Shown here in pieces: positions 35,048 through 57,959 of a stretch of 64,000 nt of DNA; the first letter of the stretch is position 1, and every line of letters begins with the position of its first letter. A model generated the notes under the pieces. The model was given only the letters and a program-made list of their open reading frames with translations, was not told where the DNA came from and did not search any database. Both the position numbers and the translations under genes were made by a program. Source of the DNA: Halobacteria archaeon HArc-gm2 (GTDB lineage: Archaea > Halobacteriota > Halobacteria > Halobacteriales > Haloarculaceae); NCBI GenBank assembly GCA_025517465.1, contig JAOPKE010000001.1:248001-312000 (forward strand), in the 5' to 3' direction.

Positions 35048-35121
35048 GCCGGAGTAGCTCAGACTGGTAGAGCGAATCCTTCGTAAGGATTAGGTCGGGG
35101 GTTCAAATCCCCCCTCCGGCT
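35048..35121 (+). tRNA. tRNA-Thr (CGT)
   Basis: GCCGGAG pairs with CTCCGGC in the acceptor stem. The anticodon stem AATCC/GGATT encloses TTCGTAA, anticodon CGT for threonine. The T-arm GGGGG-TTCAAAT-CCCCC is regular and the discriminator is T. CCA is not encoded. Partial copies of the 3' half follow downstream. Confidence 0.95.
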
Positions 35122-35294
35122 TCCTGCTGCGAACAGTTCGTGAGCAGCGGAAGCCGTGGGGGATTTGAACGAGAGAAGTCGCAGCGGCCGAACACCGTGA
35201 GGCCGACCGTCTTCGCGTAGTTCACAAACCCCCCTCCGGCTCTTTTTGACCGAGTACCACGAGGTCGGAAGAGACCTCTGTGGGGGGATTTGAA
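35101..35294. repeat. Alternating T-arm copies downstream of tRNA-Thr
   Basis: The tRNA T-arm/3' end (35101-35121) is followed by an inverted copy GGGGGATTTGAAC (35158-35170), a direct near-copy of the whole 3' end (35220-35241, GTTCACAAACCCCCCTCCGG), and another inverted copy TGGGGGGATTTGAA (35281-35294). Spacing is 57-62 bp. The direct copy is followed by TCTTTTTG, which could end transcription. Confidence 0.75.
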
Positions 35295-56603: not shown

Positions 56604-56672
56604 ACCCGAATAGAGGGGGAGCGCGCAAAAAAGCGTGCTGGCAGCATGCGCGAGCGCAGCGAACGCAGGGCT

Positions 56673-56756
56673 CGGGAGAGGAGCGAAGCGAGTCTCCCGG
56701 CGTCCAGTCGAACAGAGTGAGACTGGGCTCGATAGACGAACGAAGTGAGTCTATCG
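56673..56756. repeat. Three consecutive stem-loops with related loops
   Basis: Stems CGGGAGA/TCTCCCG (56673-56699), CCAGTC/GACTGG (56704-56726) and CGATAGAC/GTCTATCG (56730-56756) have unrelated bases. Their loops GGAGCGAAGCGAG, GAACAGAGTGA and GAACGAAGTGA share a pattern. The array starts 5 bases after the stop of the RecA-like gene and probably ends its transcript. Confidence 0.65.
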
Positions 56757-56760
56757 GGGA

Positions 56761-57417
56761 TCAAGACCCGCGGATTCTGTCGTCCCCGTCGGTCGATGGG
56801 AGGTCGACCGACAGCGACCCGTCGAGGTCGGTCTCGACGACGCCGTCGAACAGCTCGCGGATGGTGCCCATCGCCTCCTCGTCGTGGACCGTCGATTCGA
56901 CGATGGCGACGCCGATGGCGTCGACTTCCTCGATGCGCGTCGTGAGCGCGTGGAGGAACCGGAAGACGGTCTGGAGCGAGGTGTACTGGAGCAGCGTCGT
57001 GACGGAGTTCAACAGGACGCGGTTGTGTTCGACCCCGTGTTCGCACTGGAAGTACTCGATGGACTCGGCGAACTTGATCCCGATGCCGGTCATGTCCGTC
57101 GGCGAGGACGCGTAGCGGACTCGGTCGGTGTCAGTCGGTGACCTGCCCACGTGTCTGGTGACGCAATCGACGATACCCAGCAGGTCGTCGTCGGCACCGC
57201 TGGCGGTCGCGAACACCTCCTCGACCCGCTCGGCCGAGTCGTGCGTCGAGATGACGATCGCCCCCTCACCGGCTGCCATGCCGTGGCGGAGTATCTCGCG
57301 TCCCAGCCGGCGCTTGCCGGTCAACGGCGGCCCGGTGACGAGCACGTTCGTCCCGGGACGGATCGATGCTCCGTCCAGTCGACCACCGAGTGTGTAGCTC
57401 ACGGGTGGTCCCCCCAC
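56761..57417 (-). CDS. RecA/KaiC-like ATPase domain protein (DUF7504-like)
   Basis: A 218-residue P-loop protein: Walker A GPPLTGKR at about residues 29-36, a HDSAERVEEVF segment after the first strand, and VLLNSVTTLLQYTSLQTVFRFLH (in parts) typical of the haloarchaeal HTR-like/DUF7504 group. Gly-Lys is followed by Arg rather than Ser/Thr, so nucleotide hydrolysis may be weak or lost. An alternative GTG start lies five codons in. Such proteins often go with sensory or regulatory systems in haloarchaea. Function unknown. Confidence 0.78.
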   Translation of the reverse strand: MGGPPVSYTLGGRLDGASIRPGTNVLVTGPPLTGKRRLGREILRHGMAAGEGAIVISTHDSAERVEEVFATASGADDDLLGIVDCVTRHVGRSPTDTDRVRYASSPTDMTGIGIKFAESIEYFQCEHGVEHNRVLLNSVTTLLQYTSLQTVFRFLHALTTRIEEVDAIGVAIVESTVHDEEAMGTIRELFDGVVETDLDGSLSVDLPSTDGDDRIRGS

Positions 57418-57556: not shown

Positions 57557-57631
57557 GGGCGCTTAGCTCAGCCTGGACAGAGTGCATGGCTTCGGACCAT
57601 GTTGTCGGGGGTTCAAATCCCTCAGCGCTCG
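57557..57631 (+). tRNA. tRNA-Arg (TCG)
   Basis: GGGCGCT pairs with AGCGCTC (one G:U). The anticodon stem CATGG/CCATG surrounds CTTCGGA, anticodon TCG for arginine. T-arm GGGGG-TTCAAAT-CCCTC is regular; discriminator G. Downstream carries several partial T-arm copies. Confidence 0.93.
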
Positions 57632-57844
57632 TAGCTTTTCGCGAACGAACGTGAGCGAAATAGCGGAGGGTCTGAGGGATTTGAGGTAGGCGAGACGAGC
57701 GATAGCGAAGTCTCGACGTGGTTCAAATCCCTCAGCGGACGCTCTTTGTTCGTCACGTCCGTTCCTCACAAAATCACGAGCGCTGTGGATTTGAGGGAGA
57801 CCACGAGGGAGCGGAGCGATCGAAGTGGGCGTGGTTCAAATCCC
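57611..57844. repeat. Alternating T-arm copies downstream of tRNA-Arg
   Basis: The tRNA T-arm (57611-57627, GTTCAAATCCCTCAGCG) is followed by an inverted copy TCTGAGGGATTTGA (57671-57684), an exact direct copy of the same 17 bases (57721-57737), a weaker inverted copy TGGATTTGAGGGA (57786-57798), and a shorter direct copy GGTTCAAATCCC (57833-57844). Spacing is about 50-65 bp. A stem GAGAC/GTCTC with a GAGCGATAGCGAA loop lies between. Confidence 0.75.
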
Positions 57845-57959
57845 GAAAGACGCGCAAGCGCGACTTTCGACCTTCGCGAACGCGGGCCGTTCGCTCAGTC
57901 CCGCAGCGCTCCGCTACCAGCCACACCGAAAACGAGACAGTAACTCTCCTCCGACGTCG
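57632..57959. other. Non-coding region after tRNA-Arg
   Basis: No gene here. It is filled by the T-arm copies listed separately, then by sequence to the end of the convergent GH3 gene. Confidence 0.55.

What the first reader, a model, noticed from the sequence alone, without database searches (positions are those of the whole stretch)
57611..57844. The same alternating T-arm pattern after an unrelated tRNA (Arg)
tRNA-Arg has five T-arm-like copies in the order direct, inverted, direct, inverted, direct at 47-65 bp steps; the first two direct copies agree over 17 bases including the tRNA-specific CTCAGCG. Each tRNA's copies match its own T-arm and not the other's, so they arose locally at each locus by a common process. 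The intact tRNA-Ala in this window lacks them. I know of no description of this arrangement.
Basis: seen in the sequence. Interest (0 to 1): 0.65.

Follow-up and report, generated by a model that had tools for sequence, protein, structure and literature searches.

The report
Hairpin arrays copying tRNA 3' ends
Across nearly all salt-loving archaea examined, many tRNA genes are followed by small ~110-base DNA units, each carrying a spare copy of that same tRNA's last 21 bases plus two stable hairpins, a fast-changing and apparently undescribed kind of repeat that builds up at the tRNA end by an unknown recombination process.

Summary
After tRNA-Arg(UCG) the order direct-inverted-direct-inverted-direct is present at the stated coordinates; shuffles do not reproduce the direct copies. 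One inverted T-loop/direct T-loop pattern occurs in 345 of 391 haloarchaeal genomes, never in its backwards control, and in only 4 of 164 genomes of other classes of the phylum. In 29 of 30 fetched loci a tRNA lies just upstream whose own 3' end matches the copy. Each ~110-bp unit is: T-rich trailer hairpin A, inverted T-loop, hairpin B, direct copy running from G53 to N73 of that tRNA. Direct copies follow species differences of their own tRNA, 316 to 4. Arrays differ in unit number and order between 94%-identical relatives; the distal copy is the decayed one, 22 to 1; internal copies keep terminator-like T-rich trailers. Hairpin B keeps one orientation, with DNA-type C(GNA)G loops on the tRNA-sense strand, 117 to 1. 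Hairpin modules are shared between different tRNAs. Best reading: micro-cassettes added at the tRNA end by T-loop recombination, integron-like in logic but without IntI. The enzyme is unknown.

The parts
57557..57631 (+). tRNA-Arg(UCG) gene, anchor of the array
   Evidence: ARAGORN; RF00005 (G000:C1:305557-305631)
57611..57631 (+). template segment G53-N73 of the tRNA (T-loop, 3' T-stem strand, 3' acceptor strand)
   Evidence: extent defined by per-position identity of the direct copies
57632..57671 (+). hairpin A, unit 1 (T-rich trailer hairpin, TTTTCGC-GAACGAACGTGA-GCGAAA)
   Evidence: sequence; fold of the region z = -6.1; T-rich starts after copies
57672..57684 (-). inverted T-loop copy 1, CTGAGGGATTTGA, 13/13 complementary to the tRNA
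   Evidence: the repeat finder I8
57685..57720 (+). hairpin B, unit 1 (CGAGAC-GAGCGATAGCGAA-GTCTCG, GNNA loop)
57721..57741 (+). direct copy 2 of G53-N73 (19/21; GTTCAAATCCCTCAGCGGACG)
57742..57786 (-). hairpin A, unit 2; the direct-A-inverted segment is reverse-complemented relative to the orthologous single unit of relative G138
   Evidence: alignment of G000 and G138
57787..57794 (-). inverted T-loop copy 2, GGATTTGA
   Evidence: the repeat finder D11
57795..57833 (+). hairpin B, unit 2 (GAGC-GGA-GCGA loop); 95% identical to the only unit of G138
57834..57854 (+). direct copy 3, terminal and decayed (15/21)
57899..57911 (+). sixth, partial copy without T-loop (TCCCGCAGCGCTC)
   Evidence: the repeat finder D4
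35048..35121 (+). tRNA-Thr(CGU) with its own array
35158..35169 (-). inverted T-loop copy 1 of the tRNA-Thr array
35220..35241 (+). direct copy of the tRNA-Thr 3' end (GTTCACAAACCCCCCTCCGGCT), followed by CTTTTT
35282..35294 (-). inverted T-loop copy 2 of the tRNA-Thr array

Best explanation
The structure is an array of non-coding micro-cassettes of roughly 90-150 bp built at the 3' end of a tRNA gene. SHOWN: each unit consists of a T-rich trailer hairpin (A), an inverted T-loop, a structured hairpin (B) that points the same way as the tRNA, and a complete copy of that tRNA's last 21 nt (G53-N73). Units are gained, lost, duplicated and reordered between close relatives, and the copy furthest from the tRNA is the most decayed. 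INFERRED: a new unit enters by recombination within the T-loop of the tRNA (or of the first copy). It supplies a fresh 3' end with its own T-rich terminator, so the tRNA keeps working, and the old 3' end is pushed downstream. The inverted T-loop plus hairpin B, folded as single-stranded DNA on the tRNA-sense strand, is the likely recognition structure, comparable in logic to an integron attC site with the tRNA as the fixed attachment site. Incoming ends come from the same tRNA's arrays (other chromosome copies or other cells), which explains the perfect own-tRNA match. The recombinase is not identified.
For: Exact boundaries: direct copies are about 0.9-1.00 identical to the tRNA from G53 to N73 and drop to background just outside (0.38 at the second base upstream of G53-1, 0.59 and 0.37 downstream). 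Own-tRNA match: a copy follows its own species' version of the tRNA rather than another species' version of the same tRNA, 316 vs 4. Polarity: in arrays of two or more, first copy better than last 22, worse 1, tie 19. Internal copies are followed by T-rich trailers like real tRNAs (3.90 vs 3.68 T in 8 nt; background 1.40), and terminal copies resemble tRNAs without arrays (3.15 vs 3.00). Turnover with conserved flanks: Glu-ttc, Lys-ctt, Val-cac, Asn and Arg-tcg differ in unit number between G000 and G138; Val-tac and Ser-tga units change order. One filled/empty pair at tRNA-Val(cac) differs by a 102-bp unit. B orientation fixed, 117 vs 1. Inner stem Watson-Crick in 185/188 cells with several pair types, 1 G-T and 0 A-C. 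C(GNA)G loops are the known ultra-stable DNA mini-hairpins (PMC4686876). Inverted T-loops follow their own tRNA's T-loop variant, 42 vs 8.
Against: No enzyme was found: no gene passes the IntI cut-off in 59 genomes and IS200-type TnpA is absent from 21 of 59. Reordering and number changes can also come from ordinary recombination between the 21-bp direct copies; G000 Glu-ttc shows a plain tandem duplication (PQPQR). The integrase-bearing element at tRNA-Val uses a longer core. Insertion point and excised circles were not observed. Modules are also exchanged at the inverted T-loop, which a pure cassette model does not predict.
Confidence: 0.45

Rival explanations
1. Palindrome-driven duplication plus gene conversion. 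Stable hairpins downstream of tRNAs promote template switching and unequal exchange; in polyploid haloarchaea non-allelic gene conversion keeps the copies identical to the selected tRNA. No dedicated enzyme and no function.
For: Exact tandem duplications (Lys-ctt in G138, PQPQR in G000 Glu-ttc). Concerted evolution 316:4. Inversion of a direct-A-inverted segment in tRNA-Arg. Near-perfect stem complementarity with almost no G-T or A-C intermediates, as expected if one arm is copied from the other. Units occur in almost all genomes while candidate enzymes do not.
Against: Does not by itself explain the sharp G53 and N73 boundaries, B never being inverted (117:1) although A sometimes is, hairpin modules shared between different tRNAs, or the decayed terminal copy (22:1).
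Confidence: 0.3
2. A functional RNA element: the arrays are transcribed 3' trailers whose hairpins terminate, protect or regulate pre-tRNA processing, and selection keeps structure and copies.
For: Sense-strand orientation of B, 117:1; compensatory stem changes; T-rich trailers; RNA fold z = -6.1 for the window array.
Against: Unit number varies from 0 to 5 between close relatives at the same tRNA. The unpaired part of the direct copy (acceptor strand) is as conserved as the paired part, while its inverted partner is not. Almost no G-U pairs in the inner stem. Related GNA hairpins at 56650-56745 lie antisense to the flanking genes. No Rfam family.
Confidence: 0.15
3. Remnants of repeated integration of viruses or plasmids into tRNA genes (stacked att sites).
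For: Tyrosine-recombinase elements do integrate at these tRNAs, e.g. about 3.7 kb at tRNA-Val(cac) in G000 and at an orphan tRNA-Val end in L061.
Against: The real element's core starts further 5' (AGGAAGTCGGCGG...) whereas unit copies all start at G53. No inverted copies or B hairpins are expected. No units found in plasmid or phage records; the truncated IMG/VR scan gave no haloarchaeal-looking match.
Confidence: 0.07

Closest known systems
Integron cassette arrays (attI/attC, IntI)
   Same: Polarised array at a fixed attachment site; folded hairpin with complementary end boxes beside the junction; one strand structurally favoured; units reorder and duplicate.
   Different: No IntI above cut-off in 59 genomes; no gene in the units; junction is GTTCAAAT, not GTTRRRY; attachment site is a tRNA T-loop and the unit rebuilds the tRNA.
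tRNA-targeting integrative elements (archaeal tyrosine recombinases, PMC8371274)
   Same: Recombination at the tRNA 3' end restores the tRNA and leaves a displaced copy of its 3' end.
   Different: About 110 bp, no integrase; copy starts exactly at G53; alternating inverted T-loops and hairpins; many units per tRNA, almost class-wide.
Small mobile repeats SMR-A and PATEs of Haloquadratum (PMC3119063)
   Same: About 110 bp, transposase-free, strain-specific, mobilisation unknown, preference for palindromes (SMR-A).
   Different: SMR-A families are >95% conserved with family-specific inverted ends and target IS605/PATE palindromes; these units sit at tRNAs and their ends match the host tRNA.
REP/BIME repeats with RAYT transposases (from memory)
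   Same: Short imperfect hairpins, often paired in alternating orientation.
   Different: REPs are dispersed between genes and unrelated to the neighbouring gene's sequence; these are tRNA-anchored with host-specific arms, and Y1 transposase is absent from a third of genomes.

Membership tests
Integron | integron integrase IntI (TIGR02249 over curated cut-off) | tested here: not met
   0 of 59 genomes over the cut-off; weaker matches are general tyrosine recombinases
Integron | folded recombination site with complementary end boxes and strand bias | tested here: met
   R''/R' = inverted/direct T-loop following the own tRNA, structured B, sense-strand GNA loops 117:1; that it is a recombination site was not tested
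Integron | GTTRRRY core site | tested here: not met
   core is GTTCAAAT or own-tRNA variants
Integron | cassettes carry genes | tested here: not met
   units of about 90-150 bp made of two hairpins
Integron | polarised addition at a primary site | tested here: inconclusive
   first copy better than last 22:1 and a proximal extra unit in tRNA-Arg; insertion itself not observed
tRNA-integrated MGE or its remnant | integrase gene or element body between tRNA and displaced 3' end | tested here: not met
   copies lie about 80-160 nt from the tRNA with no room for a gene
tRNA-integrated MGE or its remnant | same att core as true elements at the same tRNA | tested here: not met
   true element core begins in the variable region, units at G53
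SMR-A (Haloquadratum) | about 110 bp, no transposase | tested here: met
   unit lengths
SMR-A (Haloquadratum) | insertion into near-terminal palindromes of IS605/PATE | tested here: not met
   29/30 and 41/44 fetched loci lie at tRNAs
SMR-A (Haloquadratum) | family-specific conserved inverted terminal repeats | tested here: not met
   ends match the host tRNA
REP/BIME (RAYT) | Y1 transposase of the host | tested here: not met
   PF01797 in 38/59 genomes; genomes without it (e.g. G005, G016, G041) still have units
Known structured RNA | match to an Rfam family | tested here: not met
   only tRNA and sub-threshold chance matches
Known structured RNA | transcription and processing | not testable with these tools
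   no transcriptome available

The most novel reading that the evidence does not exclude
Haloarchaea carry an active, dedicated recombination system that uses tRNA T-loops as attachment sites and folded single-stranded DNA hairpins (inverted T-loop + B + direct T-loop) as cassette ends, continually inserting and shuffling tiny cassettes that replace the tRNA 3' end: an integron-like system without genes in the cassettes and with an unknown enzyme.
Probability: 0.3. Interest if true: 0.9.

Novelty: categorically new. Interest (0 to 1): 0.74.

Why it matters
An almost class-wide, fast-evolving structure sits next to the most conserved genes of the cell, and I found no report of it. The copies follow each tRNA's own sequence, so either a recombination system rebuilds tRNA ends routinely or gene conversion is unusually active there; both are testable in Haloferax. 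If cassette-like, it would extend hairpin-site recombination to a new setting, with the tRNA as attachment site. It also matters for annotation: ARAGORN called a false tRNA within one array, and such copies can be mistaken for att sites of islands.

Tried and rejected
Chance: rejected. Rfam family: none. Plasmids and phages: no match. IMG/VR pattern scan: 120 rows, truncated, mainly AT-rich chance matches; no haloarchaeal-looking unit. Ordinary att-site remnants: rejected because the real element's core differs. IntI and IS200 TnpA as the universal enzyme: not supported; the one G000 IS200 locus has no GNA hairpin or T-loop copy. My idea that the inverted copy is a full-length copy of G53-N73 with the two ends kept looked good by eye (note) but failed a foreign-arm control: N73-end match 3.63 vs 3.42 of 5, so I dropped it. 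RNA folding energy was indecisive: sense strand lower in 115 of 165 units, but this reflects the G-A mismatches, and G-U counts did not separate the strands cleanly. A literature search for tRNA-downstream repeats in haloarchaea found no description, in an open-access library only.

Full report
OBSERVATION. The window is a haloarchaeal chromosome segment (G000:C1:248001-312000). tRNA-Arg(UCG) lies at 57557-57631. Behind it are direct copies of its 3' end at 57721 and 57834 (the tRNA's own segment starts at 57611), with inverted T-loops at 57672-57684 and 57787-57794 between them. Dinucleotide shuffles of the downstream 300 bp never reach the direct copies (0/2000); the inverted copies alone are only marginal (15/2000 and 102/2000). 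Recurrence settles the matter.

GENERALITY. In the window's own genome, own-T-arm copies of 17-18/18 occur downstream of many tRNAs, and never more than 16/18 upstream of a tRNA (13/18 outside one dense tRNA cluster). The alternating order recurs, for example ten alternating events behind tRNA-Glu(UUC). A single strict pattern (inverted T-loop, 30-60 nt, direct T-loop) is present in 345 of 391 genomes of the class and 81 of 86 genera, with zero matches of the backwards control in every genome. In a phylum-wide sample it is found in 29 of 33 members of the class and 4 of 164 others (counted from its table). Of 30 fetched loci, 29 have a tRNA just upstream that matches the direct copy; the exception (L061) is a tRNA-Val end cut off from its gene beside a tyrosine-recombinase gene. 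A more specific pattern found 44 loci in named genomes, all haloarchaea (Halobacterium, Haloarcula, Halorubrum, Natrialba, Halorussus, Halosimplex and others), 41 of them with a tRNA whose end matches.

ANATOMY. Identity of the direct copies to their tRNA starts abruptly at G53 (1.00; two bases further out 0.38), stays at 0.9-1.0 through the acceptor strand and ends at N73 (0.59 and 0.37 in the next two positions). The inverted copy is complementary over the T-loop and the start of the T-stem only: 0.84-0.99 for nine positions, falling to background after about twelve. It follows the own tRNA: where the T-loop end differs from the common form, the inverted copy matches its own tRNA better in 42 units, the common form in 8. 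Between direct and inverted copies lies hairpin A, which starts T-rich; between inverted and direct copies lies hairpin B.

HAIRPIN B. In the largest subtype the inner stem is Watson-Crick in 185 of 188 cells, with different base pairs in different units and almost no G-T (1) or A-C (0). Apical loops are mostly C(GNA)G or C(GNNA)G. RC-GNA-GY occurs in 117 of 167 units on the tRNA-sense strand and in 1 on the other. GNA and GNNA loops with G-C pairs are the known extraordinarily stable DNA mini-hairpins (PMC4686876). B is therefore practically never inverted relative to the tRNA in this set; A sometimes is (59 vs 12). The loop type and lack of G-T favour a DNA-level role, but this is inference.

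DYNAMICS. G000 and G138 (same genus, about 94% identical, syntenic flanks) differ at the same tRNAs: Glu-ttc 5 units against 2, Lys-ctt 0 (one decayed) against 3, Val-cac 0 against 1, Asn 1 against 3-4, Leu-gag 1 against 0. In tRNA-Arg the distal G000 unit is the G138 unit (B 95% identical) and the proximal one is extra; the direct-A-inverted segment is flipped. In Val-tac and Ser-tga the unit order is changed; A and B can be exchanged separately at the inverted T-loop. B modules are shared between different tRNAs, for example Asn and Ser at 98% over 55 nt and Val and Asp at 95% over 56 nt. In arrays of two or more, the first copy is better than the last in 22, worse in 1, tied in 19. Trailers after internal copies are as T-rich as after real tRNAs, and trailers after terminal copies resemble tRNAs without arrays. 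This fits an old native end at the far side and newer complete ends nearer the tRNA. Direct copies follow species-specific changes of the tRNA, 316 to 4.

WHAT IT IS NOT. At tRNA-Val(cac) G000 holds a real integrase-bearing element of about 3.7 kb. Its displaced end starts further 5' than unit copies do, and the flank behind it is the unit-free site that in G138 carries one 102-bp unit. So the units are not ordinary att remnants. No IntI passes the curated cut-off in 59 genomes. IS200-type transposase is absent from 21 of 59, including genomes with units. No Rfam family matches.

MECHANISM. I favour cassette-like insertion by recombination at the T-loop, with the folded inverted-T-loop/B/direct-T-loop structure as recognition site and the tRNA as fixed attachment site (0.45). 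Shown: anatomy, own-tRNA identity, polarity, turnover, fixed B orientation. Inferred: crossover in the T-loop, single-stranded folding, source of incoming ends, a recombinase. The main rival is palindrome-driven duplication with gene conversion (0.3), which explains tandem duplicates and concerted evolution but not the boundaries, the fixed orientation of B, or sharing of hairpins among tRNAs. An RNA function is less likely (0.15).

NOVELTY. The nearest haloarchaeal precedent found is the small mobile repeats (SMR-A) of Haloquadratum: about 110 bp, transposase-free, mobilised in an unknown way, inserted into palindromes (PMC3119063). They target IS605-type elements and have fixed ends, whereas here the ends are those of the host tRNA. 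The structure works somewhat like an integron array but fails its defining tests. 'Categorically new' refers to the arrangement; the literature check was limited to open-access text, and the mechanism is unproven.

Noticed in passing
window 56640-56765: Chain of three C(GNA)G hairpins (GAGCGCAGCGA, GAGCGAAGCGA, GAACGAAGTGA) between two minus-strand genes, with no tRNA; same apical motif as the tRNA units but antisense to the flanking genes. Such hairpins may be a wider haloarchaeal DNA feature.
   Followed up: partly
G000:C1:188777-192921 (L015, L361, L365): About 3.7-kb element with a tyrosine-recombinase gene integrated at tRNA-Val(cac); a relative (G138) has one hairpin unit there instead.
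   Followed up: yes
L031 (G000:C2:74000-82000); G138:C2:253014-258675: Dense tRNA cluster (about 13-16 tRNAs in 4.5 kb, divergent sequences) without hairpin arrays; possibly a provirus or plasmid tRNA set.
   Followed up: no
L121:1430-1600; 74 matches in G000: A dispersed repeat of up to about 230 bp with more than 40 copies across the genome, often in inverted pairs, unrelated to the tRNA units.
   Followed up: no
L064, L070, L047, L153, L173, L189: Tandem duplicate tRNA-Asp (or tRNA-Glu) genes, in most cases about 40-50 bp apart, at loci that also carry hairpin units; whole-tRNA duplication may be an outcome of the same process.
   Followed up: no
window 57874-57911; L011; L004: Alternative unit type with GACCTTCGCGAA...TTCGCTCAGTCCC in place of the T-loop, followed by the tRNA's own acceptor strand.
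   Followed up: partly
G000:C1:356605-356689 (L042): tRNA-Leu(GAG) is followed by a larger tandem unit (about 214 bp) holding a longer tRNA-Leu 3' part whose T-loop is interrupted by a GAGCAATCGC...GCGATTGCGAAC hairpin.
   Followed up: no
L061:254-1318: Tyrosine-recombinase gene beside an orphan tRNA-Val 3' end with one hairpin unit, i.e. an island integrated between tRNA and array.
   Followed up: partly
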